19,015 nt of DNA, taken from NCBI GenBank assembly GCA_025964215.1, contig JAOPZG010000214.1, positions 1 through 19,015 on the forward strand, given 5' to 3'. The translations under genes and the position numbers were made by a program. This document shows, one piece after another, positions 1,842 to 17,476 of this stretch; the first letter of the stretch is position 1, and each line of letters opens with the position of its first letter. This DNA comes from Conexibacter sp. (GTDB taxonomy: Bacteria > Actinomycetota > Thermoleophilia > Solirubrobacterales > Solirubrobacteraceae). A model generated the notes under the pieces. That model saw nothing but the letters and a program-made list of their open reading frames with translations, was not told where the DNA came from and searched no databases.

Positions 1842-1962
1842 GCCACCGGGAATTCGGCAGGACACGCCGCTTTCTGATGGGCCCACCGGTCCAAAGCGAG
1901 ATCGACCGCCGGTCCACCCCTGCCAAACCGTCCTGCACCCGCCAACTCCCCCGCGTTGGCGC

Positions 1963-1968
1963 TAGACT
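1963..1968 (+). promoter_or_regulatory. possible -10 element of the tRNA-Thr gene
   Basis: TAGACT fits the actinobacterial TANNNT -10 pattern and lies 22 bp before the first base of the tRNA. No good -35 hexamer is seen at 16-19 bp upstream. A short inverted repeat CCAAC/GTTGG just upstream could be incidental. Otherwise the stretch 1842-1990 shows no gene. Confidence 0.3.
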
Positions 1969-1990
1969 GCCGCCGTCACGCAGGACCAGT

Positions 1991-2063
1991 GCCGACGTAG
2001 CTCAGCTGGTAGAGCACTTCACTCGTAATGAAGGGGTCCCGGGTTCGAGTCCCGGCGTCGGCT
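1991..2063 (+). tRNA. tRNA-Thr (anticodon CGT)
   Basis: A 73-nt cloverleaf can be drawn by hand. The acceptor arm is GCCGACG/CGTCGGC and the D stem GCTC/GAGC. The anticodon stem is CTTCA/TGAAG with loop CTCGTAA, which gives anticodon CGT (threonine, codon ACG). The variable region is GGGTC, the T stem CCGGG/CCCGG with loop TTCGAGT, and the discriminator base T. CCA is not encoded. Its 3' part, from the anticodon loop onward, is duplicated at 15525-15566, so this gene is the island's integration site. The island supplies an identical 3' end and keeps the tRNA functional. Confidence 0.95.
2022..2063 (+). repeat. attL: 42-bp direct repeat, 3' part of tRNA-Thr
   Basis: It is identical to 15525-15566. 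Identity starts at the first base of the anticodon loop (C of CTCGTAA) and ends at the discriminator base; the flanking bases differ on both sides. Crossover within the anticodon loop is typical of one class of tRNA-targeting tyrosine recombinases, and the CTTCA/TGAAG stem would give the core-type inverted repeat. Confidence 0.93.
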
Positions 2064-2127
2064 CTTCGGGAAGTCCCTGCAAGGCTCCATGTTTCGCGAC
2101 TCGTAGGAGTCGCTCGAAATCCGCAAT

Positions 2128-2151
2128 GGGGTCCGGATGGGGTCCGAAACG
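2128..2151 (+). repeat. 24-bp end repeat, left copy
   Basis: It is identical to 15388-15411 in the same orientation. Inside it the heptamer GGGGTCC occurs twice, 11 bp apart. It lies 65 bp inside attL, and its partner lies 113 bp inside attR. Paired repeats near both ends of an integrated element are what arm-type integrase or Xis sites look like. A tandem TTCGGGTC(G/C)G pair follows at 2159-2178. The rest of 2064-2242 holds no gene. Confidence 0.6.
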
Positions 2152-2242
2152 CGGTCGTTTCGGGTCGGTTCGGGTCCGGTGCAGGACCGCGTGGTCTGCG
2201 ATGGGGCGAGGGGTGTTCGGCCTCCTCATCGACTGAGAGAGC

Positions 2243-2479
2243 ATGGTTCAGCTCTCGTTCCCGATGCCGGACGACGGTCGATCCGGTGGCCGTTCGGCGT
2301 ACGTCACGGTCGCCGAGGCGGCGGAAGAGCTGCGCTGCCACGAGCGCACGATCCGTCGCGCGATCGACCGCGGAGCGTTGCGCGCCGGCCGTGTCCGCGG
2401 CGCCAACGCGGCGCGCGGGTCGTGGCGGATCCGGCGCGAAGACCTCGACGCCTGGTTGTACGCGGAGCCGCCGGAGTGA
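2243..2479 (+). CDS. excisionase-like winged-helix (MerR/Xis-type HTH) protein
   Basis: This 78-aa protein carries the small excisionase/MerR-type helix-turn-helix. YVTVAEAAEELRCHERTIRRAIDRG at about residues 17-41 is the helix-turn-helix, followed by a short wing and the typical ending WRIRREDLDAWLYA. In the family this domain either directs excision by bending DNA at the attachment site (Xis/RDF) or acts as a small regulator. Its place between attL and the integrase, with its TGA overlapping the likely integrase ribosome site, argues for a recombination directionality factor. ATG 2243 is preceded by GAGAGA. No distinct promoter was found between attL and this start. A plain transcriptional regulator of the integrase is the alternative. 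Confidence 0.8.
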   Translation: MVQLSFPMPDDGRSGGRSAYVTVAEAAEELRCHERTIRRAIDRGALRAGRVRGANAARGSWRIRREDLDAWLYAEPPE

Positions 2480-2484
2480 GCGCC

Positions 2485-3648
2485 ATGCCGCGTAGCGCGG
2501 GGCGGGAACCGACGGTGGAGCTGCGGCGTCGGCGTTTGGCCGACGGGGGCTGGTCGGAGACGCCGACCGTCCGTTACTACGACGAGCTCGGGGTCCGGCG
2601 GCGCCAGTCCTTCGAGACGATGGCCGAGGCCGACTTCGAGCGGGCGCGCCTCGCGCTGGACCAGAGTCGCCGCGGGCCGATCGCCGGCCCGGCCGAGTCC
2701 ATGACCTTGGCCGACTTCTGGCCGACCTACCACGCCGACGCGTGCTCACGGCTGCAGGAGGCGACGATCGCCAGCTACGAGGGCGTCTGGCGGCGCGCGG
2801 TCGAGCAGCGTCTCGGCGACCGGCCGCTGCATGAGATCACGCCGCGCGAGATCTCGATGTGGCGGGTGGAGATGCAGAAGGCCGGCAAGGGACCCGAGGC
2901 GATCCGCATGTCCATGATGCTGGTCCAGGCGATGTTCACGCTCGCGTTGGAGTGGGGCGAGGCGTCGACCAACCCGGTGGCCTTGGTGCGCAAGCCGCGT
3001 CAAGGTCGCCAACGCGCGATCGAGGTCATGGACCCCAACTTGGTCGAGCGCGTCCGTCGGCGGATGCTCGCCCACGGCGACCCTTTCAGCGCGACGCTCG
3101 TCAGCGTCCTGGCCTACTCGGGCATGCGGCCCGGCGAGGCGCTGGCGCTCGAACGCCGACACATTCGCAACGACACCATCTTGGTCGAGCAGGCCGTCGC
3201 GCGCGGGCGGATCAAGCTGCAGAAGACCGGACGGATCTACCGGACCGTCGATCTCCTGCCGCCGCTGCGCGACGACCTGGCCTCGTGGATCGCGTCGTCG
3301 GGCCGGGACGCGCCGACCGATCGCCTGTTCCCGCGCGACGACGGCGAATGGTTCCGCATCGACGACTGGAACAACTGGCGCAACCGCAAGTTCTACGAGG
3401 CCTTCGATGACCTGGAGATCAGCCGCCGTCGGCCCTACGACCTCCGTCACTCCTTCGTCTCGCTGATGATCCGCGAAGGCGAGCTGTCGATCGTCGAGCT
3501 AGCCGACCAGCTCGGCCACGCGGCGACCGAGACGCTGAAGACCTACGCGCACGTCTTCTCGGAGTACCGGCGCCAGCCACGTGTGCCCGCGGTCGAGCTG
3601 ATCGCAGAGGCGCGGAGAGATCTCCCTAGAGCCGGCGGTGACAGGTGA
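2485..3648 (+). CDS. int: tyrosine recombinase (site-specific integrase)
   Basis: The 387-aa protein has an N-terminal arm-binding region, a core-binding SAM-like domain at about residues 70-165, and a C-terminal catalytic domain. Visible catalytic residues are Arg215 (SGMRPGEAL), Arg321 in RPYDLRHSF, His345 (QLGH) and the nucleophile Tyr354 (LKTYAHVF). The first His of the usual HxxR box is Tyr318, a known variation. It should catalyse integration and excision between the tRNA-Thr repeat copies. ATG 2485 was chosen because GGAG lies 8 nt upstream; a GTG at 2476 is also in frame. The reading frame stays open much further upstream, but that part runs through the excisionase gene and is unlikely to be translated. 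Orientation away from the tRNA is as usual for tRNA-linked islands. Confidence 0.95.
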   Translation: MPRSAGREPTVELRRRRLADGGWSETPTVRYYDELGVRRRQSFETMAEADFERARLALDQSRRGPIAGPAESMTLADFWPTYHADACSRLQEATIASYEGVWRRAVEQRLGDRPLHEITPREISMWRVEMQKAGKGPEAIRMSMMLVQAMFTLALEWGEASTNPVALVRKPRQGRQRAIEVMDPNLVERVRRRMLAHGDPFSATLVSVLAYSGMRPGEALALERRHIRNDTILVEQAVARGRIKLQKTGRIYRTVDLLPPLRDDLASWIASSGRDAPTDRLFPRDDGEWFRIDDWNNWRNRKFYEAFDDLEISRRRPYDLRHSFVSLMIREGELSIVELADQLGHAATETLKTYAHVFSEYRRQPRVPAVELIAEARRDLPRAGGDR

Positions 3649-3681
3649 CCGACACATCGTCGAGAATGGGAGACGGTGACC

Positions 3682-4833
3682 GTGCGCGTCGACATCGCTC
3701 CTGAGGTTCTGGTCTGGGCCAGCGTGCGCTCCGGCCTGGCCCACGACGAGATCGTGCGCCACTTCCCCCGCTTCGATGATTGGGTCGGACAGCACGGCGA
3801 CGCACCCACCCTGCGCCAGGTCGAGAGCTTCGCGCAACGGACACACACCCCCGTCGGGATGCTGCTCCTCCCAGCGCCGCCGGAAGAGGCGCTGCCGATC
3901 CCGGACTTCCGGACGTTCGCGGGTCAAGGTCTCGCGCAGCCGAGTGCTGACCTGCTGGACGCCGTGTTCCTGTGCGAGCAGCGCCAGGGCTGGTACCGCG
4001 AGCATCTGCTCGGCCTCGGCGAAGAGCCGTTGGAGTTCGTCGGCTCCCGCCGGACCACCGATGACGTCGACCTCGCCGCCGACGAGATCCGGGAGGTCTT
4101 GGGGTTCCAGGTCTCGCAGCGCGCGAGCCATCCAACCTGGACCGAAGCCCTGCGCGCGCTCATCGACTTGGTCGAGGGCGCCGGCATGCTGGTGATGGTC
4201 AGCGGGATCGTCGGAAGCAACACGCATCGCGTTCTCGATCCGACCGAGTTCCGCGGGTTCGCACTAGTTGATGAACTTGCGCCGCTGGTGTTCATCAACG
4301 CCACGGACACCAAGGCCGCGCAGATCTTCACGTTGGCTCACGAGGTCGCCCACGTGTGGCTCGGCCAGTCCGCCGTATCCAACCCCCGGCTGGACCGGCC
4401 GGAGCGGAGCAACGCCAGCGAGCAGTGGTGCGACGCCGTGGCGGCGGAGGTGCTCGTGCCCTTGGAGACGCTGCGTCAGCAGTTCAACGCCAACGCCCCG
4501 ATCCAAGACGAGATCCAGCGGCTGGCTGGGTTCTACAAGGCCAGCACGCTGGTCGTCCTCCGCCGCATCTTCGACGGAGGTTTGCTGGGCTGGGACGAGT
4601 ACCGCGCTGCCTACGCCTCCGAGTACGAGCGCGTGATGGCGATCGTCCGCGAGAGCCCCAGCGGCGGCGACTTCTACAACACGCAGCCGCTGCGGGCGAG
4701 CCGACGATTCTCGAAGGCGATCATCGCCAGCGCGCTCGAAGGGAACACGACCTACCGCGAGGCCTATCGCCTCCTCGGCTTGAAGACCGCCGACACCTTC
4801 GCGAAGCTCGGCGAAGCGCTCGGGGTGTCGTGA
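3682..4833 (+). CDS. XRE-like / ImmA-IrrE family zinc metallopeptidase, antitoxin-side partner of DUF4411
   Basis: The protein has 383 residues from GTG 3682. The N-terminus has the degenerate XRE-like helix-turn-helix found in this family and ends in the typical LPIPDFRT. The C-terminal half carries the ImmA/IrrE (COG2856-type) zinc protease motif LAHEVAHVWLG (His220, Glu221, His224), with a likely third ligand Glu247 in SEQWCDAVAAEVLVP. Such proteins cleave a repressor or act as the regulatory half of toxin-antitoxin pairs. It overlaps the DUF4411 gene by one base (TGATG), so the two are co-translated. GTG 3682 was preferred over GTG 3676 because GGGAG at 3668-3672 has proper spacing only to 3682. 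Only about 33 bp separate it from int, so read-through from int is possible. Confidence 0.88.
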   Translation: MRVDIAPEVLVWASVRSGLAHDEIVRHFPRFDDWVGQHGDAPTLRQVESFAQRTHTPVGMLLLPAPPEEALPIPDFRTFAGQGLAQPSADLLDAVFLCEQRQGWYREHLLGLGEEPLEFVGSRRTTDDVDLAADEIREVLGFQVSQRASHPTWTEALRALIDLVEGAGMLVMVSGIVGSNTHRVLDPTEFRGFALVDELAPLVFINATDTKAAQIFTLAHEVAHVWLGQSAVSNPRLDRPERSNASEQWCDAVAAEVLVPLETLRQQFNANAPIQDEIQRLAGFYKASTLVVLRRIFDGGLLGWDEYRAAYASEYERVMAIVRESPSGGDFYNTQPLRASRRFSKAIIASALEGNTTYREAYRLLGLKTADTFAKLGEALGVS

Positions 4834-5327
4834 TGTACCTGGTGGACTCGGACGTGTTCATGCAGGCGAAGAACCGTCACTACGGGTTCGACTTCTGCCC
4901 CGGGTTCTGGGCCTGGCTCGACGCGGCACACGAGACCGGTCGGGTGGCCAGCGTGGGCAAGATCGGTGACGAGCTTCGCGCGGGGAAGGACGAGCTCGCC
5001 GCATGGGCGGGAGATCGCTCGGCGTTCTTCCTCGAGCCAGACGACGCCGTCGTGACGAGCCTGCGTGTGCTGAGCGGGTGGGCGATCGACAAGAGCACGG
5101 GCTACTTCCTGGCGGCGCGCAACGACTTCCTCGCGTCGGCCGACTACTACCTGATCGCCCATGCGCACGCGCAGAGCCACGTTGTAGTGACCCATGAGCG
5201 ATCGCAGCCGGACAGCAAGCGGCGGATTAAGATTCCCGACGCGTGCGCGGCCTTCGGCGTCAAGTGCATCGACCCGTTCGAGATGCTCCGGGCCGAAGAC
5301 GTACGGCTCGTTCTCGCGCCCTCCTAG
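4833..5327 (+). CDS. DUF4411 PIN-like domain protein, putative ribonuclease toxin
   Basis: This 164-aa protein begins MYLVDSDVFMQAKN and has the conserved SADYYLIAHA and KIPDAC segments of DUF4411, a PIN-fold family. Candidate acidic metal ligands are Asp5 or Asp7, Glu47, Asp104 and Asp136. PIN domains are Mg-dependent ribonucleases, and DUF4411 genes regularly follow XRE/ImmA genes as the toxin half of a pair. ATG 4833 overlaps the upstream stop by one base. Its own stop overlaps the stop of the convergent XRE gene around a CCTAGG sequence. Toxicity is inferred from family and context; the active-site set appears complete. Confidence 0.85.
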   Translation: MYLVDSDVFMQAKNRHYGFDFCPGFWAWLDAAHETGRVASVGKIGDELRAGKDELAAWAGDRSAFFLEPDDAVVTSLRVLSGWAIDKSTGYFLAARNDFLASADYYLIAHAHAQSHVVVTHERSQPDSKRRIKIPDACAAFGVKCIDPFEMLRAEDVRLVLAPS

Positions 5328-5557
5328 GCGTCCGCGTCGACGGCCTTGCCGAGCGCCTGCATCGACAGCCCGACGGCTGCGGCCACGCTGCGGACCGTCG
5401 ACCAGCTCGGGTTCGTCTCTCCGCGCTCGAGTCGCGCCAGGGCGCCGACGGTGATCCCCGCCGCGTGGGCGGCGTTCTCCTGGGACAGGCCTGACTTCAG
5501 GCGGGCGTCGCGGAGGACGCGGGCGAGAACGGCGTCGTGCGCCGATGGGCGGGCCAT
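5324..5557 (-). CDS. small XRE-family transcriptional regulator
   Basis: The product has 77 residues from ATG 5557. A canonical XRE helix-turn-helix is readable: LRDARLKSGLSQENAAHAAG followed by ITVGALARLERGETNPSWST at about residues 14-53. The alternative TTG start at 5593 adds 12 residues, but a TATAGT -10 (5602 to 5597, minus strand) would put the transcript start at about 5590, so ATG 5557 fits better; its ribosome site is weak (GAAGG, close). It is convergent with the DUF4411 gene and divergent from the 149-aa gene. An inverted repeat lies directly over its promoter, so autoregulation and control of the divergent gene are likely. It could also regulate the neighbouring ImmA/DUF4411 pair. 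Confidence 0.85.
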   Translation of the reverse strand: MARPSAHDAVLARVLRDARLKSGLSQENAAHAAGITVGALARLERGETNPSWSTVRSVAAAVGLSMQALGKAVDADA

Positions 5558-5594
5558 CGCCTTCAGGTTCGCTAATGCCAGTTCCTTGAACAAG

Positions 5595-5620
5595 GCACTA
5601 TAAGACTAGGCTTAAAGTGC
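5595..5620. promoter_or_regulatory. operator-like inverted repeat in the XRE / 149-aa intergenic region
   Basis: The arms GCACTATAAG (5595-5604) and CTTAAAGTGC (5611-5620) are inverted copies with one mismatch and a 6-bp spacer. The left arm contains the TATAGT -10 of the XRE gene on the minus strand. The right arm abuts the extended -10 of the plus-strand gene. This is the geometry expected for an XRE dimer site repressing both promoters. Confidence 0.55.
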
Positions 5621-5626
5621 TACCCT
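5618..5626 (+). promoter_or_regulatory. extended -10 promoter for the 149-aa gene
   Basis: TGCTACCCT is a TGn-TANNNT extended -10 element. Its transcript would begin near 5633, inside the following palindrome. No good -35 hexamer was found, as is common for extended -10 promoters. Confidence 0.35.
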
Positions 5627-5649
5627 GGTTGTCGTCCACGACAACCAGG
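5624..5649. promoter_or_regulatory. perfect 12-bp-arm palindrome over the transcript start and ribosome site
   Basis: CCTGGTTGTCGT (5624-5635) and ACGACAACCAGG (5638-5649) are perfect inverted copies separated by two bases. The right arm runs into the AGGAGG ribosome site (5647-5652) of the 149-aa gene. It can be a dimeric protein operator or, if transcription starts upstream of it, an RNA hairpin hiding the ribosome site. Confidence 0.6.
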
Positions 5650-5657
5650 AGGCGAAG

Positions 5658-6107
5658 ATGAAGGTCATGGGTAGTGGCTCGCCGGCGCACCTCACGCTGC
5701 GGCTGCGCGAGCGCGAGGTGTCGGGCTTGGATCGCGCGCTCGAGCTTCGCGAGGCGATGGCGGGCGGCAGTTCCGACGCGACGCTGGAGCTGTCGCCGAC
5801 GCAGGTCCGCGCCGAGATCGCGGCCGCTCGCGAGCGGCTCGCCGGTGCGGCGAAGCTGGAGCAGGCGCGGGTTGAGATCACCGGCCCGACGTGGCTGCTG
5901 GCTCCGGTGATCTCCTCGGCGGCAGGCGCGGCCGCCGAACGGCTGGCGACGACGATGCTGCGGTTCACGCGCGACGGGCGGGACGTCGACGACGCCGAGG
6001 AGCTGCGGGCAGCCATCGGCGACGCGTCGGCATGGAGCGAGACGCTGATCGCTTGCCGGCACGCGCAGTCCGGGCCGCCGTCGGGCGCTCGGACCTCCGC
6101 GGACTAG
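5658..6107 (+). CDS. hypothetical 149-aa protein divergent from the XRE regulator
   Basis: I do not recognise the family. ATG 5658 has a strong AGGAGG five bases upstream (5647-5652), much better than most genes here, so the start and the gene are well supported. The protein is soluble, Ala/Arg/Glu-rich and probably mostly helical. It has an ELSPTQVRAEIAAARERLAG helix at about residues 45-64 and an Asp/Glu-rich stretch near residues 112-120 (DGRDVDDAEE). No membrane segment or catalytic motif is apparent. It is transcribed toward the convergent relaxase gene, and the two stop codons overlap (CTAG at 6104-6107). With two operator-like palindromes before it, it is probably tightly repressed. 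A role as transfer accessory, excision control or XRE-linked toxin is possible but unsupported. Confidence 0.7.
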   Translation: MKVMGSGSPAHLTLRLREREVSGLDRALELREAMAGGSSDATLELSPTQVRAEIAAARERLAGAAKLEQARVEITGPTWLLAPVISSAAGAAAERLATTMLRFTRDGRDVDDAEELRAAIGDASAWSETLIACRHAQSGPPSGARTSAD

Positions 6108-8983
6108 AACCCTCGGTCGAAGTCGATGTCGGGCTCCGGCTGCTCGGGGATGGCGACGGCGAGTGCGTCCGGATCGCCGATGAGCCGGACCGCGGCCTCG
6201 GTCCAACGGTCTCGGTCGGCGAGCGTCGCCGGCCGCTGACCGATCGTCGCGATGAGCCGTGGCTGCGGATCGAGCAGGTCGGCCCGGTCGATGGAGCAGG
6301 GAATCTCGACAAGATCGATGACGCCGCGCACGGCAGGCGGCGAGTCGGCGGCGCGCTCCGCGTTCGCGGTCCAGCGCTCGATTGCGGCCTGCTGCTGGCT
6401 GATCGCCTGCTCGACCTCGGCGCGTCGTGCGCGGTGGAGGCGGCTCATGGCGTCACGCTCGCCACGGAGTGCCGCGATGCGCCGCTCGGCTCCCTCGACA
6501 GCTTCGCGCGTCTGGTCGAGCGCGTGCACGGTCCGGGCGACGCCGGCCTCGACAGCGACGTTCAACGCCATGTCCTTGCTTCGGCTTGTAGTCAATGCCT
6601 CCGTGATCGTCTCGGTGAGGTGATCGTGGTCAGGCTCCAGGCCGGGCAGGGCGCGCTCGACCGAGCCGGGGGAGACGGTGTAGTAGCGCGCCTGGTCGCG
6701 GTGGCGCGAAAAGGCGGTGTAGCCCCACTCGCGATAGAGCTCGTCCGAGCCGAGGATGAAGGTGCGGTCGAGCGTCGCGCCCTGGGCAGCGTGCGCGGTC
6801 AGCGCGTAGCCGTGCTGGAGCCAGCCCTCGTCCAGGTAGTTCGAATCGACCTGTCGGCGATCACCGGCCAAGGTGGTGATCTCCACCGTGCGCCGGTCGG
6901 TGTCGATGGCCGTGACGCGGGCACGCGTGCCGTTGACGAGGCCGGCGCGGCGGTCGTTGCGCCGGGCGATGACCTCGTCGCCGACTGCGAACGCCCGGTC
7001 GCCGCTGCTGACCTGCTCGGGACCGAGCCGTCCGTCGCGGTCCATCCGAGCGCGGGCCAGGGCGTTGAGGTCGGCGACGTCGGACCGGCGGTGAGCGATC
7101 ATCACCGCGTCGTGGTGGCCGGTGCGGGCCGACTCCCACCAGTCGTCGACCAGCGTCAGGCGCAGCTCGTGGGCGGTTGGTCGGGCGACGAGGCGGCCGT
7201 GGTCGCGGTAGGTGAAGGCGCGCACGTCGCCGTCGCGAAGTTGCGCGAGGGCGTCGCGGTCCCACTGCTGGTTCTGGCGGTGGACCTCTCGCAGCTCGAT
7301 CGCCCCAAGGCTGTCGGCGAGGCCGCGGAACGCACCGCCGGCGTCGATCTCGGGAAGTTGATGGTCGTCGCCGACCAGCACGAGCTTGGAGTGCGTGTCG
7401 GCCGCATGGCGCGCGAGGCGGTCGATGGCGCGCGAGCCGACCATGCCGGCCTCGTCGACGACAAGCACCGAGCCATGGGGGAGACCGCGCGCATGCTCGA
7501 CGTCATCCAAGAACCCGGCGATGGTGGTGCTGTCGATCCCGGCGGTGCTCTCCAGCTCGACCGCTGCGCGGGCGGCGAGTGCGACGCCGAAGACGCGGAT
7601 CCCGTCTGCTTCCCAGATCTCGCGCGCGGCGGCGAGGGCGTGGGTCTTGCCGGTCCCGGCCGCCGACCGGACGACCTCGATTCCGTTGCCTGATGTCGTC
7701 AGTCGCGCGGCCATCGCGGCCTGCTCGCCGCTGAGCCGCGGCCGTCGCTCGAGATGCGCGGTCGCCGCCTCGGGTGAGATCTGAGCGACGTCGGTGCGCT
7801 GGCGCGCCGCGGCGTCGGTGATGAGCCGGTGCTCCAGCGCGAGCATCTCAGGCGTGGAGTAACGGGCGCCGCCAAGCTGGCGACGACCGTTGTCGTCCTC
7901 CAGTCGCACCGCGTGCGCGGACGCCAGCCAGCGGTCGGTCAACGCTTCGAGGCGCTCGGCGTCCGCGCCGTCGCGGTGAGCTTCGGCCCACGCGCGCAGG
8001 ACGTCGCGGCGATCGAAGGTCGAGGCCTGCTCGGTCAGGCCGCCGGGTCCAGCCAAGTCATGTGCTGTCGCTTCAAGGTCTGGCGGTCGTGTCGCTCTCG
8101 GGCGGTGGCGATCGAGCAGCGCCGTGACGTCCTCGGAGCCGTAGCCGATTTCCACGGCCCGCGCGCGCCACTGGTCGCGCAACGTCGGTCCGTCGATGTT
8201 GTGGTTCTTGGCCCGGCGGGTGTCTAGCGCCGCGATCTCCGCCGCTCGTCGCGACCGCCCGCCGGTCTCGGCCAATCGCTCGAGGATCTCGGCGCGTCGG
8301 CGCGAGAAGTGCTCGAGGACGCGATCGTCGACCCCGCAGATCTCCGCGATGCCCTTGCGCACCGGCTCCCACTCGACGCCCAATACTTCCGTTAGGCCAC
8401 GGCGCAGCGAGGCTTCGTACAGGTAGCCCGCGGTCTTGGCGTGGGCGTACAGTGCCCGGCCGTCGAGCGTGGTCGCCCGCCCCTCGGCCGCGGTCTCGTT
8501 GGCGACAACCGCGTGGGTGTGCAGCTGCGGATCGCCGGCCCGCGAGCTGCGATGCCGGAACGCCGCCACCTTGACGCCCTCGCCGCGGAGCACTCGGTGA
8601 CCGCCCTGGCCGCGACGCGTCCAGACCGCATTGCGCTCGATGTACCCCAATGCGTCGGCAACGGCCTGGTCGTGGACGTCCCGGACGACCGGCGCCACCG
8701 TCCGATCGCCCAGCCCGAACAGGACGGACACCGACTTCGGCGCGGAGAAGGTCAAGTCGTACGCGAGCACCTTCCGCTGCCGTTCGGTCTCCGTCGAGAG
8801 CAGGGTCAGGAACGCGTCGTCTTCAACCGCGCCGTCCAGCCCATCCCGCTCAGCCGCGGTGCCGAGCCATACGCCCTGCGCCTCGCCGCGGCCGGAGTAG
8901 TAGTCCTCTTTGCCGTGGGCGACGTTGTCGATGTAGTAGCGCGGATTGCCGTCTCCGCCGCCGACCTTGCCGATCGAAAGCAC
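6104..8983 (-). CDS. MobF-family conjugative relaxase (TraA/TrwC type) with helicase domain
   Basis: The protein has 959 residues from GTG 8983. The N-terminal relaxase domain begins VLSIGKV, as usual for the family. It shows tyrosine pairs at 16-17 and 28-29 (RYYIDN, EDYYSG), the strand YDLTFSAPKSVSVLFG, and the metal-binding histidines of DPQLHTHAVVAN (His155, His157, with His144 upstream). The second half is a superfamily-1 helicase: Walker A SAAGTGKT at about 440-447, Walker B VLVVDEAG at about 506-513, and helicase motifs up to TAFSRHRDQARYY. It should nick oriT, stay bound to the 5' end and unwind the transferred strand. GTG 9013 is an alternative start 10 residues earlier. The IS110 element begins about 50 bp upstream and separates it from its original promoter and probably from oriT. 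No transfer channel genes accompany it. Confidence 0.93.
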   Translation of the reverse strand: MLSIGKVGGGDGNPRYYIDNVAHGKEDYYSGRGEAQGVWLGTAAERDGLDGAVEDDAFLTLLSTETERQRKVLAYDLTFSAPKSVSVLFGLGDRTVAPVVRDVHDQAVADALGYIERNAVWTRRGQGGHRVLRGEGVKVAAFRHRSSRAGDPQLHTHAVVANETAAEGRATTLDGRALYAHAKTAGYLYEASLRRGLTEVLGVEWEPVRKGIAEICGVDDRVLEHFSRRRAEILERLAETGGRSRRAAEIAALDTRRAKNHNIDGPTLRDQWRARAVEIGYGSEDVTALLDRHRPRATRPPDLEATAHDLAGPGGLTEQASTFDRRDVLRAWAEAHRDGADAERLEALTDRWLASAHAVRLEDDNGRRQLGGARYSTPEMLALEHRLITDAAARQRTDVAQISPEAATAHLERRPRLSGEQAAMAARLTTSGNGIEVVRSAAGTGKTHALAAAREIWEADGIRVFGVALAARAAVELESTAGIDSTTIAGFLDDVEHARGLPHGSVLVVDEAGMVGSRAIDRLARHAADTHSKLVLVGDDHQLPEIDAGGAFRGLADSLGAIELREVHRQNQQWDRDALAQLRDGDVRAFTYRDHGRLVARPTAHELRLTLVDDWWESARTGHHDAVMIAHRRSDVADLNALARARMDRDGRLGPEQVSSGDRAFAVGDEVIARRNDRRAGLVNGTRARVTAIDTDRRTVEITTLAGDRRQVDSNYLDEGWLQHGYALTAHAAQGATLDRTFILGSDELYREWGYTAFSRHRDQARYYTVSPGSVERALPGLEPDHDHLTETITEALTTSRSKDMALNVAVEAGVARTVHALDQTREAVEGAERRIAALRGERDAMSRLHRARRAEVEQAISQQQAAIERWTANAERAADSPPAVRGVIDLVEIPCSIDRADLLDPQPRLIATIGQRPATLADRDRWTEAAVRLIGDPDALAVAIPEQPEPDIDFDRGF

Positions 8984-9034
8984 GCTTCTCAGTCGACGGG
9001 GCCGGGCAACCACCCTCGCCCGATCGCACGCAGT

Positions 9035-10741: not shown

Positions 10742-11527
10742 ATGGCATCAGTCTGTCCGCCGCCTCACGATTGCCGCATCACCGCTCGCTGCCTGAAGGC
10801 AACCTTTCAAGTGTCGCTACCGCTTGGCAAGGACTTCGCGACGCTGCGTGCTGAGAACTCACTCATCGACGCCTTCTTTGAACGCCGCGAGAACGATCCG
10901 CGCGGCGGGGAAGACGGAGAGCGCGTGAGCCAGGTCCGCTCGAGGCCGGCATTCAAGCTGACGTACGGCCGGATGCGTGGCGCGACGTGGCTTGATGGGG
11001 AGCGACCGCCGCAGGCCATCGTCTGGTTGTTAGGTGCCGAGAAGCACGACGATCGGCACAAAGGCCGCAGCGACGCGTACGACATCCTTGGCCGCCTGGA
11101 CGAAGACGGTGAGCTGTTTCCAACGGAAGCCGATCGTAAGCGTCTCGAACTCGACCGCCGCCGGCGAGACAGCGAGTCATTCCTCCCCGAGGCCCGCCAG
11201 GACGCACGGCGCCTGGTGGCGAACTTACGGCCGGGACAGCAGCGCGCCAGTCTCAGCAGTATCTCCGTACGTATTATCGTCGAGGAACTCGACGATCTTG
11301 TCGCCGTGCACGTCGCCGTGTCGGCTGCTCCGGTCATCGGCCGCCTGAGCGGCGAGCGGTTCCCGCTGACCCAGTCCCGGTTCCTAGCGCTCCAGCTCGC
11401 GATGCAGGCCGCACTCGAAGAGGTTTACGGTCCGCCTGCACTCTTGGACGAGCTCCGCGACACGTCAGCATTCCCGGGCGGTCTCGGCGAGGAGCGGCCG
11501 TTTGTCGCGCTCGTTGAGCCTCGGTAG
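10742..11527 (+). CDS. unrecognised protein next to the ubiquitin-like operon
   Basis: The product has 261 residues from ATG 10742, or 281 if ATG 10682 is used; neither has a ribosome site, but 10742 fits a leaderless start from a good promoter. I do not recognise the family. The middle reads FKLTYGRMRGATWLDG, then IVWLLGAEKHDDRHKGRSDAYDIL and DGELFPTEADRKRLELDRRR. This alternation of strand and charged helix, with clustered Lys/His/Arg/Asp, could be a small nuclease or binding fold. The last 110 residues look like a separate domain (VRIIVEELDDLVAVHVAVSA, LTQSRFLALQLAMQAALEEV). No signal peptide or membrane segment is seen. It ends 11 bp before the convergent regulator gene, placing it in the same cargo block. 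A function in the ubiquitin-like system is only a guess. Confidence 0.75.
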   Translation: MASVCPPPHDCRITARCLKATFQVSLPLGKDFATLRAENSLIDAFFERRENDPRGGEDGERVSQVRSRPAFKLTYGRMRGATWLDGERPPQAIVWLLGAEKHDDRHKGRSDAYDILGRLDEDGELFPTEADRKRLELDRRRRDSESFLPEARQDARRLVANLRPGQQRASLSSISVRIIVEELDDLVAVHVAVSAAPVIGRLSGERFPLTQSRFLALQLAMQAALEEVYGPPALLDELRDTSAFPGGLGEERPFVALVEPR

Positions 11528-11538
11528 CACCGCCGCGG

Positions 11539-12399
11539 CTATTCGAACGCGTCGCGGATGACTTGGAGATCCTCCTCCGTCATCCCAGATGTGTGGACGG
11601 CGGCTTCGTTCTGATCGTTCAGTGCCTGCTGCGCCCATAGCAGGCTCTCACTGATCTCACCGCTGTGGCGGTGACGATACGCGAGCCACGCTTGCGCAAG
11701 CTCATCAGAGGTCGGGCGCTCGGTACTTGCCCACTCGGTCCACGCAGCTCCGAGCAGGTCTGCGGATGCCTGGCCTCGGACCGCGGCGAAGATGTCGACT
11801 TCGCGAGCGAGCACAGGCGGCAGCTGCGCCGGCACTTCGTCGGCACGCACAGCGTAAGGGTTGAGGTAGATCGTTCCCTCGCTGCGCGGCCGCTCGTCGC
11901 GCTGTACGAATCCCTTCTGCACGAGGTTGACGAGACGGTTGGTCGCCGCCGGCGCCGACAGGCCGGCCTCTTGTGCGAAGGTGGCGACGTTGACCGCACC
12001 CCCGAGCCGACGCATGGTCTCGAGGGTCTCCCGCTCGGTGGCGGTAAGGTCGCCGATCGGCTCGGCCTCAGCGATACGGCGTGCCGACGGAGCGACGAAC
12101 AGGGCTAGCTGGTGCTTCTCGGCGAGCGCTTCCAACATGTCACGCAGCGGGACGCTTGGCGTGCAGATCACAAGCATGAGCGGCCCAAGGCTTCCTGAGC
12201 GGGCTGCGCGTGCTAGCGGCACGATCAGTTCGTGCAGCGCCGACGCGAGCGGAAACCGACCCTCAAGGTCGATGGCGAGCACTGTCGGTTCCTTGACACC
12301 GCTGGGTTCCACGAGCGCGGCGCGGTACGCGGCGGTCTGACCCGGATCTAGCATAAGGCCGTGGGTGGGCGGTGCACTGTGGGCGATGGCGAGGTTCAT
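11539..12399 (-). CDS. winged-helix transcriptional regulator divergent from the ubiquitin-like operon
   Basis: This 286-aa protein has two visible parts. Residues about 35-120 form an alternating strand/helix domain (VLAIDLEGRFPLASALHELI, then LGPLMLVICTPSV) of possible STAS-like or other sensing type. Residues about 118-185 form a MarR/ArsR-like winged helix (LTATERETLETMRRLGG, FAQEAGLSAPAATNRLVNLV, then wing QRDERPRSEGTIYLNP). A helical C-terminus follows. ATG 12399 lies inside the palindrome ATTCGGTACCGAAT and shortly after a TAGATT -10, with no ribosome site, so it is probably leaderless. It is back-to-back with the four-gene ubiquitin-like operon, 116 bp apart, and most likely represses that operon and itself. 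Antiphage operons often have such divergent regulators; which ligand or damage signal it senses is unknown. Confidence 0.8.
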   Translation of the reverse strand: MNLAIAHSAPPTHGLMLDPGQTAAYRAALVEPSGVKEPTVLAIDLEGRFPLASALHELIVPLARAARSGSLGPLMLVICTPSVPLRDMLEALAEKHQLALFVAPSARRIAEAEPIGDLTATERETLETMRRLGGAVNVATFAQEAGLSAPAATNRLVNLVQKGFVQRDERPRSEGTIYLNPYAVRADEVPAQLPPVLAREVDIFAAVRGQASADLLGAAWTEWASTERPTSDELAQAWLAYRHRHSGEISESLLWAQQALNDQNEAAVHTSGMTEEDLQVIRDAFE

Positions 12400-12411
12400 T
12401 CGGTACCGAAT
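12398..12411. promoter_or_regulatory. 14-bp perfect palindrome over the regulator start codon
   Basis: ATTCGGTACCGAAT is fully palindromic. It overlaps the regulator's ATG (12399-12397, minus strand) and touches the candidate -10 TAGATT (12414-12409). It is a good candidate for an autoregulatory operator of the winged-helix protein. Confidence 0.45.
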
Positions 12412-12500
12412 CTATCGGCAGATGGGGGGATGGCTGCAAGTATGCCCGCCGCAACTCGGACGAACGGCCTATTGACTTCACTGAATTCCATGAAGATCTC

Positions 12501-12515: not shown

Positions 12516-12767
12516 ATGCCGTCGCACCAGATCAACATCGTCGTCGTGGTAAACGGGCAGGAGGCGCCTATCTCCGCGAGTCCCGAGGCGCCGCTGCACA
12601 GCATCTTGGAAAAGGCGTTGCACGAGACCGGGAACATCGGCCAGGGACCGGACAACTGGGAGTTCCGTGACGCCGACGGCAACCCGCTTGACCTCGGCAC
12701 GAAGCTCGGTGCCCTCGGTGCCGGCGCGCGCATTTTTCTCAACCTCAAGGCCGGTATCGGCGGCTGA
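12516..12767 (+). CDS. ubiquitin-like protein ending in Gly-Gly (DUF2604 type)
   Basis: This 83-aa protein has a beta-grasp layout: two strands INIVVVVNGQEAPISAS, helix APLHSILEKALHETGN, then WEFRDADGNPLDLGTKLGAL and the last strand RIFLNLKAG. It ends AGIGG at residues 79-83 with nothing after the Gly-Gly, so no processing is needed before activation. The INGQ and the LNLKAGIGG ending match DUF2604, a bacterial ubiquitin-like family. The E1 would adenylate the C-terminal glycine, and the protein would be attached to target proteins through the E2-like partner or act as a sulfur carrier; the E2 gene favours conjugation. No lysine follows the obvious ubiquitin pattern (only Lys33, Lys63 and Lys78). 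The stop overlaps the next start by one base (TGATG). Confidence 0.88.
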   Translation: MPSHQINIVVVVNGQEAPISASPEAPLHSILEKALHETGNIGQGPDNWEFRDADGNPLDLGTKLGALGAGARIFLNLKAGIGG

Positions 12768-13387
12768 TGACCTCCCAGGCAGTCGACCCCGACGTGTCGC
12801 GGGTCAAGTTCGACCGCGAGATCTCCGACTTCCGCGCTCTCGCCGGCGACTACGGGCGGCGCGGCTGGTTCGTCGTGGAGGCAGACTTTCCGACGGCGTT
12901 CGTGGTCTTGGGGATCCCGCAGCTAAAGCCCGCTGGGCTCCTGTGCGGCGTGCTATTCGACTACGCCGACTACGACCTGAGGCCCCCGTCCGTGCGCTTC
13001 GTCGACCCGTTCACTCGCGTGCCATACCGAGGGAGCGAGCTACCGACCCGCATGCTGCGCCAGACCGAGATCGACCCGCCCCCGGGCTTCCCAATCATGC
13101 CGGGCGCGGCTGGCGCCCGTATGATTCAGCAGCAGCCGCTGATCATCGACTACGAGGGCGTAGGCAGCGACGAGCCTCCCTTTCTGTGTCTGGCGGGGGT
13201 GCGGGAGTATCACGACCATCCCGCGCACTCGGGCGATCGGTGGGAGTTGCACCGCCCCGCAGGAGCCGGCCGGCTCATTCGCCTCCTCGAGGTCATCGAC
13301 AATTACGCCATCCGCCCCATCGCTGGCTATGGCGTGAACCTCGTTCCCCAGGTCGCCGGCTTCACGCAGAACGAGGTGCCCAACTGA
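12767..13387 (+). CDS. E2-like (UBC-fold) conjugating protein, CEHH-type
   Basis: In this 206-aa protein, residues 30-85 read like the E2/UBC core: strands WFVVEADFPTAFVVLGI and LLCGVLFDYADYDL followed by RPPSVRFVDPF, the counterpart of the E2 YPxxPPxVxF segment. Downstream, FLCLAGVREYHDHPAHSGDRWELHR supplies Cys141, Glu147, His149/151/154 and His162. This Cys-Glu-His-His cluster recalls the predicted metal-binding CEHH domains reported in prokaryotic ubiquitin-like gene clusters. Cys141 sits where the catalytic ICL cysteine of an E2 would be, 18 residues before a Trp. It could be the thioester-forming cysteine, or the cluster may bind metal; Cys60 is the only other cysteine. No classic HPN motif is present. 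It is translationally coupled on both sides. The E2 role is inferred from fold pattern and operon position. Confidence 0.78.
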   Translation: MTSQAVDPDVSRVKFDREISDFRALAGDYGRRGWFVVEADFPTAFVVLGIPQLKPAGLLCGVLFDYADYDLRPPSVRFVDPFTRVPYRGSELPTRMLRQTEIDPPPGFPIMPGAAGARMIQQQPLIIDYEGVGSDEPPFLCLAGVREYHDHPAHSGDRWELHRPAGAGRLIRLLEVIDNYAIRPIAGYGVNLVPQVAGFTQNEVPN

Positions 13388-13857
13388 CCCTCGAGCATGT
13401 TCGGCGCTTCGTCGTCCCTCGCGCAGTGGCGAGCGGCACAGAGGAGCACCTCCGTCGGGCTGGGGCCAGAGGCTTCGAGCTGTTCGTTGTCTGGACCGGG
13501 CACGTGGAGGGCGCTGTATTCAGCGTCGTAAACGGTCACGTCCCACGGCAGACATCGGCGAAGACGGAGAGCGGCCTGCTCGTCCGTGTTGAGGGCGACG
13601 CCCTCCACCAGCTCAATGTCTGGCTCTACGAGCACGGTGAGACGCTCGGCGCCCAAATTCACGCCCATCCCGACGACGCCTATCACTCCGACACCGACGA
13701 CACCTTCCCAATTGTCACAACTGTTGGCGGCTTGTCGCTTGTTGTCCCTGAGTTCTGTCGCGACGGCCTGCTTCCTCGCAGCGCCGCATTCCGCCTGAGC
13801 TCAGCGGGGTGGATGCGCAGCCACCAGCCCGTTGCCGAACTCGTCGACGTCGTCTGA
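13384..13857 (+). CDS. JAMM/JAB-family deubiquitinase-like metallopeptidase
   Basis: The protein has 157 residues if it starts at CTG 13384. The JAMM zinc-protease motif is present as QIHAHPDDAYHSDTDD: His93, His95, Ser102 and Asp105, with the upstream catalytic Glu probably Glu32 (FELFVVWTGH). Enzymes of this type cut the bond after the terminal glycine of the ubiquitin-like protein, removing it from targets or trimming precursors; as the Ubl here already ends in GG, removal is more likely. In frame there is no ATG, GTG or TTG near the E2 stop. CTG 13384 overlaps that stop (CTGA) and keeps the conserved-looking start LTLEHVRRFVVP, while the next option, GTG 13426, would remove the first strand. 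The stop overlaps the E1 start by one base. Confidence 0.88.
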   Translation: MTLEHVRRFVVPRAVASGTEEHLRRAGARGFELFVVWTGHVEGAVFSVVNGHVPRQTSAKTESGLLVRVEGDALHQLNVWLYEHGETLGAQIHAHPDDAYHSDTDDTFPIVTTVGGLSLVVPEFCRDGLLPRSAAFRLSSAGWMRSHQPVAELVDVV

Positions 13858-15311
13858 TGCTCGCCGACTACTACTCCCGCAGCGCCCTCGCTGCGGCTCA
13901 GGTGCTTGAGGGCTTCGATCCTGTCCGGTTCCGCGCTCATCTTGAGGCCACGACGGTTGGGCTTAGCGTTCGGAGTCTCGACGGCGAGGCGGGCGCGCTC
14001 GCGGACCTAGCGGTGCGGCTGCTCGCGCGCCTTTATCCGAGCCTCGAGATCCGGGGGCCCGGGGAGCTTGCAGCGCTCGCTCGCGCGATCAACCCCAACA
14101 TCGACATCGTCGACGGCGCGAAGCACGGCATCGTCGTCGGCGACGGCGACCCGTTCGAGGAGTCTGTCTTCGCTGGGAGCGACGGTTGGGTGGCGCGGGT
14201 TCGCAGCGACGCGCCGATGGCTACGTGCGACTCATCCAACCCGGTCGGCGCCGGTGCTGCCGCCTGTCTGGCTACCGCCGCCATATTCCGGCGAGTGTTC
14301 CTCGATGTGCCGACTGAGAGCGTGGTGTTTGACGCCTACGGCGGGCGCTTCCAAATTGGAGAGTCGAACCCGTCACTGCCAGCACGGCTCAACGGCGACG
14401 CGGTGCTCGCCGGCGCCGGTGCCATCGGCAATGGCGCCTTATGGGCGCTGGCCCGGGTGCCAGTTGCCGGCGTCGTCCATGTCGTCGACCATGAGGACGT
14501 CGAGCTCAGCAATTTACAGCGCTACGTGCTTGCTAATCGTGAGGACGAGGGTGCCGTGAAGGTTGACCTTGCCGCTCGCGATTCCGTTCAGCTCGAGCTT
14601 AACGGCTACCGAGCGAACCTCGGCGCGTTCCTGGCCGAGCACGACTATCGCTGGCCGACGATGATGCTCGGCCTCGACAGCGCTCGCGACCGCGTCGCCG
14701 CACAGGCCTCACTACCCGAATTCATCATCAACGCGTGGACACAGCCCGGCGATCTTGGGATCTCCGCCCATTCGACGTTCGGCGGTGACGGCGCTTGTGT
14801 CAGTTGTCTCTACCTGCCCGCGGGAAGGAATCGCAATGAGGATGAACTCGTGGCCGAGACGCTCGGTATCCCGCATCAGCTGATGGACGTCCGCACGCTG
14901 CTGCACACCGGCGGTCCAGTTCAGCGCCCGATGCTCGAAGCCATCGCTCAAGGCATCGGCCGCCCCCTTGACGTCGTTCTGCCGTTCGAAGGACGTTCCG
15001 TTCGAGAACTCTATGTCGAGGGTTTCTGTGGCGGCGCCGTGATTCCCTTGGGTCAGGCCGGCCGGCCCGTCGCCGACGTCCACGTCCCGCTTGCCCACCA
15101 GTCCGCGCTGGCCGGGATCCTGCTCGCCGGAGCATTACTCCGCGAGGCAATCGACGGGCCGCCCGCCATCACCACTGTCACCCGTCTGAACGTCCTGGAT
15201 GGGGCAGGAGCCGACGTAACGCAGCCCGCACGTGCCGCCCGCAACGGCCGCTGCATCTGTGACGACGCAGACTTCTGCAAGGTCTACGAGGACAAGTACA
15301 GACGTTCTTAG
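13857..15311 (+). CDS. E1-like (ThiF/MoeB superfamily) ubiquitin-like-activating enzyme
   Basis: The protein has 484 residues. Residues 1-170 form an N-terminal domain without recognised motifs. The Rossmann adenylation domain follows: GAGAIGNG at 186-193, the acidic end VVDHEDVELSNLQR (Asp211, with Arg222), and GLDSARDR at 272-279. Cysteine pairs ACVSC (314, 317) and CICDDADFC (466, 468, 474) probably hold structural zinc. Cys391 in EGFCGGAVIP is a candidate thioester cysteine. It should use ATP to adenylate the Gly-Gly end of the 83-aa Ubl and pass it to the E2-like protein. Start ATG 13857 overlaps the JAMM gene stop (TGATG). Length and order (last of four) match the E1 of bacterial Ubl operons such as Bil. 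No E1-E2 fusion as in type II CBASS is present. Confidence 0.9.
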   Translation: MLADYYSRSALAAAQVLEGFDPVRFRAHLEATTVGLSVRSLDGEAGALADLAVRLLARLYPSLEIRGPGELAALARAINPNIDIVDGAKHGIVVGDGDPFEESVFAGSDGWVARVRSDAPMATCDSSNPVGAGAAACLATAAIFRRVFLDVPTESVVFDAYGGRFQIGESNPSLPARLNGDAVLAGAGAIGNGALWALARVPVAGVVHVVDHEDVELSNLQRYVLANREDEGAVKVDLAARDSVQLELNGYRANLGAFLAEHDYRWPTMMLGLDSARDRVAAQASLPEFIINAWTQPGDLGISAHSTFGGDGACVSCLYLPAGRNRNEDELVAETLGIPHQLMDVRTLLHTGGPVQRPMLEAIAQGIGRPLDVVLPFEGRSVRELYVEGFCGGAVIPLGQAGRPVADVHVPLAHQSALAGILLAGALLREAIDGPPAITTVTRLNVLDGAGADVTQPARAARNGRCICDDADFCKVYEDKYRRS

Positions 15312-15469: not shown

Positions 15470-15524
15470 GGACTTCACCGGTTACGACGCGACGCCAGGG
15501 TCTGCTCAAAAGCCCTCAGCGTCG

Positions 15525-15566
15525 CTCGTAATGAAGGGGTCCCGGGTTCGAGTCCCGGCGTCGGCT
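15525..15566 (+). repeat. attR: 42-bp duplicate of the tRNA-Thr 3' part
   Basis: It is identical to 2022-2063, from the anticodon loop to the discriminator. The upstream sequence does not form the 5' half of a tRNA, so this is a fragment left by integration and not a second tRNA gene. It marks the right border of the island. Confidence 0.93.
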
Positions 15567-15866: not shown

Positions 15867-17000
15867 GTGACTCACGAAGACAACGACGATGAAGATCTCG
15901 AGGTCGACTATCGCCGACGCTCCGCTCAGCTGAGTCTGCTCGGCGAAGAAGACGTCGAGGACGTAGATCCCCTGGATGAGCAGGAGATCATCAACTTCAC
16001 GTACGACATCACGTCGTACGGCGTCGACTTCGTCGTGGACGGTTTGGTTCAACGGCTGGATCGCAATGACATTCAGGTGCCGCCGTTTCAGCGGGACTAC
16101 GTCTGGAACAAGACGCAGGCAGATCGCTTTGTCGAGTCGTTGCTTCTCGGTCTTCCAGTCCCGGGGATCTTCCTTTCAAGAGAGGAGGAGACCAACAAGT
16201 TGCTGGTGATCGATGGCCAGCAGCGGCTGCGGACGCTTCAGGCTTTCTACGCGGGGCGGTGGATGGACGACGAGGAGTTTCGCCTCGATTCCGTACGCAC
16301 CAGATTTCGTGACGCCACCTACGCGGCACTCGCGCCGGACGACAAGCGGCGACTTGACGACAGCATTCTGCACGCGACCGTCATTAAGCAGGATCAGCCG
16401 AGCGAGGACCAGAGCAGTGTCTTCTTCATCTTCGAGCGCCTAAACAGCGGCGGTACGCAGCTCGAACCACAAGAGATTCGAGCTGCCATTTACCAGGGCG
16501 AATTCAACGATCTGCTTGCAAGGCTCAACGATGAGTCAGCGTGGCGCGCCATCTACGGGAAGAAGTCTCCCCGTCTCAAGGACCAGGAGTTGATTCTCCG
16601 CTATCTGGCAATGCTTGAGCGTCACGACAGCTACTTGCGTCCTATGAAGGAGTTCTTGAACGCCTTCATGGCTACAAAGCGCCACCTCAGTCCTGAAGAC
16701 GCGGAGCGCTATGCATTGTCGTTCACCGAGACGATTCAGATCGTTCATGACGTACTCGGTCGCCAGGCGTTCAAGCCACGTACATCTTTGAGCGCGGCCG
16801 TCTTCGACGCTGTCATGGTGGGGCTGACGCACAGGCTTGCCTCAGGGCCAATCACCGACAGAGAGCAGGTCCGCCACGTATACGACCAGCTGCTCGGTGA
16901 CAATCGATTTGTAGATGCAACCATTCGCTCTACGGCAGACCAGGAGCGCGTTCGCCTCCGTATCAAGCAGGCTGTCGAAGCATTCAGCGCAGTGCCATGA
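15867..17000 (+). CDS. DUF262 (GmrSD/ParB-like nuclease fold) protein
   Basis: This 377-aa protein has an acidic N-terminus of about 40 residues followed by the DUF262 core: VPPFQRDYVWNKTQADRFVE at 71-90, LLLGLPVPGIFLS, and the signature IDGQQRLRTLQAFY at 115-128. ERLNSGGTQLEPQEIRAAIY further on is also typical. DUF262 is a ParB/Srx-like fold used as a nucleotide-dependent DNase or NTP-sensing module in GmrSD restriction enzymes and related defence proteins. The C-terminal GmrD-type HNH domain (DUF1524) is absent; instead a separate HEPN gene follows with an ATGA overlap (16997-17000). The pairing suggests a toxin-antitoxin or abortive-infection unit in which DUF262 controls or aids the HEPN nuclease. 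It lies outside attR, so it belongs to host or an older insertion. Confidence 0.88.
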   Translation: MTHEDNDDEDLEVDYRRRSAQLSLLGEEDVEDVDPLDEQEIINFTYDITSYGVDFVVDGLVQRLDRNDIQVPPFQRDYVWNKTQADRFVESLLLGLPVPGIFLSREEETNKLLVIDGQQRLRTLQAFYAGRWMDDEEFRLDSVRTRFRDATYAALAPDDKRRLDDSILHATVIKQDQPSEDQSSVFFIFERLNSGGTQLEPQEIRAAIYQGEFNDLLARLNDESAWRAIYGKKSPRLKDQELILRYLAMLERHDSYLRPMKEFLNAFMATKRHLSPEDAERYALSFTETIQIVHDVLGRQAFKPRTSLSAAVFDAVMVGLTHRLASGPITDREQVRHVYDQLLGDNRFVDATIRSTADQERVRLRIKQAVEAFSAVP

Positions 17001-17476
17001 TCTGGCACGACGTCGAGCGGCATGCGCAACAGGTTGACGCGGTCCTCGCTCGGGCCAAGCAAGCGGCGGTTACAGAATCGCCGGAGCTACAGGCTGACCT
17101 CGCGCGGTACGCCTGCGTGCTGGTTGCTGGCTACGTCGAGCAGTCGGTCAAATCGATCTTCGGTGAGTTCGTACGTACGCGCGCGTCCACGGAAGTGCAT
17201 CGATACGCCGAGCGCCGTCTAGCTCGAGTGCGCAACCTCAACGCCAACGATCTTGCTGCCCTTGCTGGAGACTTCAACCCTGCGTGGCGGGTTTCCCTTG
17301 ATCTCGTTCTTCAAGACGAGCGCAAGGCTGCTCTAGACAGTGTTGTGGCAAATCGCAACGTGATCGCTCACGGTCGATCCGTCGGCATCGGGATCGTGCA
17401 GATCGGGACCTACCATGGGCAAGTGAAGAACGTGATCAAGGAGCTAGCGCTAATTACCGGCGTGCTCGCGAGTTGA
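16997..17476 (+). CDS. HEPN-domain putative ribonuclease partnered with DUF262
   Basis: This 159-aa protein is all-helical. The HEPN active-site motif is RNVIAH at residues 120-125 (R-x4-H, with Asn121), near the end of a long helix as usual, and Glu48 in GYVEQSVKS may complete the site. It resembles the RiboL-PSP/MAE_28990-type HEPN proteins that sit beside DUF262 genes. HEPN proteins cut RNA, often tRNA, and act as toxins in antiphage or toxin-antitoxin systems. The ATG overlaps the DUF262 stop (ATGA), so the genes are co-translated. It ends 4 bp before the stop of the convergent MFS gene. The key residues look intact; RNase activity and target are inferred. Confidence 0.83.
   Translation: MIWHDVERHAQQVDAVLARAKQAAVTESPELQADLARYACVLVAGYVEQSVKSIFGEFVRTRASTEVHRYAERRLARVRNLNANDLAALAGDFNPAWRVSLDLVLQDERKAALDSVVANRNVIAHGRSVGIGIVQIGTYHGQVKNVIKELALITGVLAS

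What the first reader, a model, noticed from the sequence alone, without database searches (positions are those of the whole stretch)
12516..15311. Four-gene bacterial ubiquitin-like conjugation operon carried on a mobilizable island
An 83-aa Ubl ending in Gly-Gly, an E2-like protein, a JAMM peptidase and an E1-like enzyme are encoded in that order. Each gene overlaps the next by 1-4 nt, which implies fixed co-translation. The order is the one known from Bil-type antiphage operons (Ubl, E2, DUB, E1), but the parts differ. The Ubl is a single short DUF2604-type domain already ending in GG. The E2 has a Cys/Glu/His (CEHH-like) cluster instead of an HPN motif. The E1 has a large motif-free N-terminal domain. 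This looks like a less studied subtype of bacterial ubiquitination with its own dedicated regulator.
Basis: partly seen in the sequence, partly recalled or inferred. Interest (0 to 1): 0.93.

Follow-up and report, generated by a model that had tools for sequence, protein, structure and literature searches.

The report
Bacterial ubiquitin-like operon with dedicated switch
A bacterium carries, on a small mobile DNA island, a known kind of bacterial ubiquitin-like protein-tagging system that probably fights viruses, and beside it a conserved control gene that may also hold a toxin-like partner in check.

Summary
The four genes are real and intact but are not a new subtype. Each protein matches the solved Bil protein of the same role (PDB 8TYX/8TYZ; E 9e-21, 2e-48, 3e-33, 3e-91) with the aligned catalytic residues kept. 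CEHH is BilB's own motif, the E1 N-terminus aligns with BilD, and a tail-less Ubl occurs in 13 of 29 relatives. The island is real. The new part is the control region. A divergent STAS-wHTH protein accompanies 12 of 31 related operons; on a BilD tree these form one clade with one loss. An 18-bp inverted repeat precedes the Ubl gene in 11 of 13 such loci against 3 of 17 others (noticed post hoc). In the window's branch the protein has an extra part weakly like RHH antitoxins, and neighbour 10742-11527 weakly resembles RelE-type toxins. In another genome a stand-alone RHH-like gene with a relative of that neighbour precedes a PADLOC-type Bil operon. Best reading: a Bil conjugation system under a CapS-like repressor without adjacent kinase, in one branch linked to a toxin-antitoxin-like pair. 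Nothing was tested at the bench.

The parts
12516..12767 (+). BilA-type single-domain Ubl, 83 aa, C-terminal GG, no tail
   Evidence: DUF2604 1.3e-21; BilA 8tyx 9.2e-21 over residues 4-83
12767..13387 (+). BilB-type E2, 206 aa, CEHH site C141/E147/H149/H154
   Evidence: Metal_CEHH 7e-55; BilB 8tyz_C 2.1e-48; site kept in 31 of 31 relatives
13384..13857 (+). BilC-type JAMM peptidase, 157 aa, start probably CTG 13384 (else GTG 13426)
   Evidence: BilC 8tyx_B 2.9e-33; E32, H93, S102, D105 kept in 30 of 30 relatives
13857..15311 (+). BilD-type E1, 484 aa; C391 aligns with catalytic Cys417 of BilD
   Evidence: BilD 8tyz_A 3.2e-91 over residues 2-482; Cys417 named in PMC11354881; Cys in 28 of 31 relatives, 3 gaps
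11539..12399 (-). divergent regulator, 286 aa: STAS domain (about 3-112), MarR-like wHTH (117-185), RHH-like C-terminal part (about 195-286)
   Evidence: model pLDDT 84.7; structure rows; RHH profile rows 0.022-0.12; in 12 of 31 related loci
12477..12494 (.). proposed operator, 18-bp inverted repeat YYCAY-N8-RTGRR
10742..11527 (+). orf281 product (261 aa): RelE-like N-terminal domain plus second domain; convergent with the regulator
   Evidence: homologs, model pLDDT 94.5, structure rows, co-occurrence
1991..2064 (+). tRNA-Thr (CGT), integration site
2019..2063 (+). left att repeat
15522..15566 (+). right att repeat
2482..3648 (+). tyrosine integrase
   Evidence: Phage_integrase 4.3e-10
6104..9013 (-). 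MobF (TrwC-type) relaxase with helicase
   Evidence: TrwC 1.1e-73, MobF above cut-off

Best explanation
This is a Bil operon with a CEHH-type E2 on a tRNA-integrated mobilizable island. Shown by sequence: a single-domain Ubl encoded with its GG end exposed, an E2 with the CEHH site, a JAMM peptidase and a two-part E1, with the aligned catalytic residues intact. Inferred from the solved system: the E1 adenylates the Ubl, takes it on C391, passes it to E2 Cys141, and the two attach it to lysines of target proteins, probably phage proteins (the last point recalled from the Bil literature). The peptidase removes it; this Ubl needs no maturation. Inferred from conservation: the divergent STAS-wHTH protein is a dimeric repressor on the 18-bp inverted repeat upstream of the Ubl gene, released by a signal not yet known. 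In this actinobacterial branch it also carries an antitoxin-like part that probably binds the neighbouring RelE-like protein (least certain step).
For: PDB matches to all four Bil proteins and conserved catalytic residues; order A-B-C-D in 26 of 31 loci; regulator divergent in 12 of 31 loci, one clade on the BilD tree, one match in each of 5 genomes of such loci, full-length in 2 of 399 class genomes, both beside BilB; STAS and wHTH folds; operator 11 of 13 against 3 of 17; RHH-like part and orf281 relatives occur in the same three Bil loci.
Confidence: 0.72

Rival explanations
1. A separate, little-studied subtype of bacterial ubiquitination distinct from Bil.
For: PADLOC's own BilB model hits the E2 only at 0.022 and there is no BilA hit; NCBIfam has no model for the first three proteins.
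Against: All four proteins match Bil proteins with solved structures, E1 and E2 at E 3e-91 and 2e-48; the CEHH site is BilB's. PADLOC's models fit the other, DUF7665-type Bil (L059).
Confidence: 0.05
2. The RHH-like part plus orf281 is an independent toxin-antitoxin-like module that merely travels with Bil operons and has no part in their control or action.
For: An RHH-like gene and an orf281 relative also occur without Bil in G218 (L058), and by eye with an HNH gene in G603 (L068). In G590 an orf281 relative stands without a noticed RHH gene. Only 3 of 6 class genomes with an orf281 relative have it beside a Bil operon.
Against: The RHH-like part is fused to the Bil regulator in the window, L002 and L003. 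15 of 41 orf281-homolog contigs share their exact length with a listed BilB or regulator contig, 0.4 expected by chance. A pair also stands directly before a Bil operon of the other type (L059).
Confidence: 0.35
3. The regulator is a true CapS, phosphorylated on DNA damage by a CapK-like kinase encoded elsewhere.
For: Same two-domain build and boundaries and an 18-bp site like CapS's wide palindrome; five Bil operons with capK and capS are reported (passages of PMC13373217); the window protein has Ser at the aligned position 53 (my alignment by eye).
Against: That position is Ser in only 11 of 52 homologs; no GHKL kinase among the window genes scanned or 10 neighbour genes of seven regulator loci; no CapS chain was hit in PDB sequence searches, though I cannot tell whether CapS entries are in that copy.
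Confidence: 0.15
4. The operon tags the cell's own proteins in a stress response instead of fighting phages.
For: For the related Bub operons protection against phage is said not to be shown (PMC13373217 discussion).
Against: Patchy, mobile distribution and close homology to Bil, reported as antiphage (recalled).
Confidence: 0.15

Closest known systems
Bil (BilABCD) of PDB 8TYX, 8TYY, 8TYZ, 8TZ0 (Chambers et al. 2024, recalled, not held)
   Same: Ubl, E2 with CEHH, JAMM, two-part E1 with aligned catalytic Cys, same gene order
   Different: This Ubl has no C-terminal tail to remove, which 12 other relatives' tails-free state shows to be common: 13 of 29 relatives are tail-less; JAMM start is CTG; regulator and orf281 are added
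PADLOC-type Bil with DUF7665 E2 and tandem Ubl (as in L059)
   Same: Same four roles and order; also preceded by an RHH-like gene and an orf281 relative
   Different: E2 is DUF7665 instead of Metal_CEHH; window proteins hit its PADLOC models weakly or not at all
Operon type 6c of Iyer et al. 2006 (PMC1779556, section 14 read)
   Same: Prototype on the NGR234 megaplasmid, where the E2 has a relative of 45% identity
   Different: The 2006 text calls the E2 a metal-binding protein and the E1 N-terminus an E2 domain
CapK+CapS and VapKSC (PMC13373217; discussion and passages seen)
   Same: STAS + wHTH repressor at immune operons; 18-bp inverted repeat; in VapKSC a CapS-like protein holds a toxin
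   Different: No adjacent kinase seen, phosphosite not conserved, divergent orientation, RHH-like third part, RelE-like instead of VapC partner
RelE/ParE/HigB toxins with RHH antitoxins
   Same: Predicted N-terminal fold and RHH-like partner
   Different: Extra C-terminal domain; no profile match to any solved toxin; partner fused to a STAS-wHTH regulator

Membership tests
Bil (BilABCD, CEHH type) | Four genes Ubl, E2, DUB, E1 in this order | tested here: met
Bil (BilABCD, CEHH type) | Ubl homologous to BilA with C-terminal Gly | tested here: met
   9.2e-21, ends GG
Bil (BilABCD, CEHH type) | E2 with Cys, Glu, His, His site | tested here: met
   C141, E147, H149, H154 aligned with C138, E144, H146, H151
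Bil (BilABCD, CEHH type) | JAMM catalytic residues | tested here: met
   E32 on the mutated Glu33 of the BilC construct; E32, H93, S102, D105 in 30 of 30 relatives
Bil (BilABCD, CEHH type) | E1 homologous to BilD over its length with catalytic Cys | tested here: met
   2-482 of 484, C391 on Cys417
Bil (BilABCD, CEHH type) | Conjugates the Ubl to lysines; protects against phage | not testable with these tools
   needs an expression and infection test
PADLOC-type Bil (DUF7665 E2) | E2 of the BilB model of PADLOC | tested here: not met
   0.022, 12.5 bits, against 2.2e-57 for the L059 E2
CapS | STAS domain followed by wHTH | tested here: met
CapS | Conserved phospho-serine in STAS | tested here: not met
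   aligned position 53 is Ser in 11 of 52 homologs, the window among them; position chosen by eye
CapS | capK immediately before capS | tested here: not met
   window genes; 10 neighbour genes of seven regulator loci
RHH/CopG antitoxin (regulator residues about 195-286) | Ribbon-helix-helix fold | tested here: inconclusive
   top four PDB profile rows are RHH proteins at E 0.022-0.12
RelE/ParE toxin superfamily (orf281) | RelE fold | tested here: inconclusive
RelE/ParE toxin superfamily (orf281) | Toxic, neutralised by its partner | not testable with these tools
   needs an expression test

The most novel reading that the evidence does not exclude
The divergent protein is repressor and antitoxin in one: its STAS-wHTH half keeps the Bil operon off and its RHH-like half keeps the RelE-like neighbour inactive. 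One signal, phage attack or Bil conjugation itself, would then both switch on ubiquitin-like tagging and free a growth-stopping toxin as a second line of defence. The RHH-like gene and orf281 relative before a PADLOC-type Bil operon (L059) would mean that both kinds of Bil can use this back-up.
Probability: 0.3. Interest if true: 0.78.

Novelty: new variant of a known kind. Interest (0 to 1): 0.57.

Why it matters
How Bil operons are kept silent and what wakes them is, as far as I could see in the papers held, little known. A conserved regulator with a proposed operator across several phyla makes that directly testable with a reporter and a binding assay. If its antitoxin-like part really holds a RelE-like protein, bacterial ubiquitin-like tagging would be tied to a built-in abortive-infection switch, and a CapS-type repressor would be shown to work without an adjacent kinase.

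Tried and rejected

Led nowhere: sequence-blind inverted-repeat test (5-bp arms at the 18-bp span in 7 of 13 loci against 5 of 17; span 20 as high, 8 of 13 against 2 of 17); promoter and terminator scan (nothing found); search of the phylum of L005's genome for fresh loci (2 of 396, one already known, one weak); DUF2604 in papers (0); PDB profile search with orf281 (nothing relevant). Paper searches gave one review (PMC11354881, passages seen), one 2006 survey (PMC1779556, section 14 and passages) and one 2026 paper (PMC13373217, discussion and passages) of use; in what I saw, none describes this regulator without a kinase, or orf281, with Bil. Chambers 2024, Hor 2024 and Gong 2025 are not held.

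Dropped rows: L001 (copy of the window) from all locus counts; L016, L017, L023 (cut or frameshifted BilD) from the tree; L031, L032 have no BilA by this HMM and so are not in the tail and operator counts. L036, L039 and L052 come from the same contig as L003 by its length and are not counted again. One search used the 120 listed of 766 BilB hits. Several loci end soon after the regulator, so absence of orf281 there is weak evidence.

Full report
What is there. The window lies in a draft genome (G000, 3.4 Mb in 674 contigs, 65% complete). G000 is of the same family as G445, whose contig has the length (200,658) of the Solirubrobacteraceae record behind L003, so the host is probably a member of that family (inference). 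A tRNA-Thr gene at 1991-2064 and a 45-nt repeat of its 3' end at 15522-15566 (44 of 45; core found only in these two places) bound an island. It holds an integrase, an HTH_17 excisionase-like gene, an IrrE-like peptidase, a DUF4411 gene, a small HTH gene, a MobF relaxase with helicase and an IS110 transposase. No type IV secretion gene appeared among the genes I scanned, so 'mobilizable' is fair.

The operon. Ubl, E2, JAMM and E1 lie at 12516-15311 with 1-, 4- and 1-nt overlaps, the 4 depending on a CTG start for the JAMM gene. Each protein matches the Bil protein of the same role in the PDB: BilA 9.2e-21, BilB 2.1e-48, BilC 2.9e-33, BilD 3.2e-91. The alignments put the E2's C141/E147/H149/H154 on BilB's CEHH, the JAMM Glu32 on the mutated Glu33 of the BilC construct, and E1 C391 on Cys417, which the review PMC11354881 (passages) names as the reacting Cys. 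Among the relatives these are kept in 31 of 31 loci for the E2, 30 of 30 for the JAMM positions tested (E32, H93, S102, D105), and 28 of 31 with 3 gaps for the E1 Cys.

Relatives. A pattern scan of one genome per species gave 31 loci; 26 of 31 keep the order A-B-C-D. Exceptions: BilC on the other strand in L028 and L029, not found in L027; no BilA found in L031 and L032. The E2 family is rare and patchy: 3 of 396 genomes drawn from the phylum, 4 of 399 from the class, 3 of 146 in the family, 2 of 396 in the phylum of L005's genome, the own or centre genome included each time. Twelve plasmids of rhizobia carry it, nine of them predicted conjugative, among them that of NGR234, the prototype of operon type 6c of Iyer et al. 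2006 (PMC1779556, section 14 read). No match in phages or viral contigs. A Ubl ending in Gly with no tail occurs in 13 of 29 loci, in GG in 6 of 29.

The operator. An 18-bp inverted repeat YYCAY-N8-RTGRR lies within 250 bases upstream of the Ubl domain in 11 of 13 loci with the regulator (window 12477-12494) and in 3 of 17 without; shuffles give 0.018 and 0.012 per locus; Fisher p 6e-4. L002 and L014 have it with 1 and 2 mismatches. I first noticed the pattern in these same loci. As a partial hold-out, the stricter pattern of six loci (L005, L006, L009, L011, L012, L016) was tried on the other seven: 2 of 7 match (shuffle mean 0.037) and 0 of 17 controls; the relaxed form matches 5 of 7 (0.107) and 3 of 17 (0.213). 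A sequence-blind test was not selective. CapS's wide site also spans 18 bp. I hold the operator likely, not shown.

Verdict. Membership in Bil is firm; the 'less studied subtype' is not. The control region is the part worth following. In the papers I could search I saw no description of it, but the key Bil papers are not held, so novelty there is provisional.

Noticed in passing
window 15867-17476 (+): Just outside the right att repeat lie a GmrSD_N (DUF262) gene (PADLOC NsnA 2.9e-70, PD-T4-2_A 1.2e-60) and a RiboL-PSP HEPN gene overlapping it, a probable second defence pair.
   Followed up: partly
window 3676-5327 (+): IrrE-like M78 peptidase gene followed by a DUF4411 gene inside the island, with an HTH gene at 5324-5593 (-): looks like a toxin-antitoxin-type set.
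   Followed up: no
L059 1037-4695 (-) and the RHH-like gene of L041 1489-1749 (-): RHH-like gene and orf281 relative directly before a PADLOC-type Bil operon, followed by an HTH + peptidase-like gene at 117-965 (by eye).
   Followed up: partly
L015 5215-6606; L026 5623-6573: Ubl and E2 lie in one open frame with no stop between them, a possible Ubl-E2 fusion or polyprotein.
   Followed up: no
L055 (G682) 1046-7864: A distant Bil operon in the same bacterial family also lies beside an integrase and a MobF-like relaxase.
   Followed up: no
L021 2410-3318; L024 4597-5449; L025 4660-5566: Other Bil operons have a WYL protein or an HTH + M78 peptidase pair upstream, like CapW and CapH+CapP (names by resemblance).
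   Followed up: partly
window 12398-12411: Perfect 14-bp palindrome ATTCGGTACCGAAT overlapping the regulator's start; not seen in the other regulator loci.
   Followed up: no
L028 10416-10961 (-); L029 6910-7410 (-): BilC lies on the opposite strand, away from the A-B-D genes.
   Followed up: no
L009: The record is a metagenome bin labelled Klebsiella pneumoniae, but its operon groups with gammaproteobacterial and acidobacterial bins, so the label may be wrong.
   Followed up: no
L017 and L020, upstream of the Ubl gene: Two Mesorhizobium loci without the regulator carry near-identical copies of the 18-bp pattern; an unrecognised regulator there is possible.
   Followed up: no
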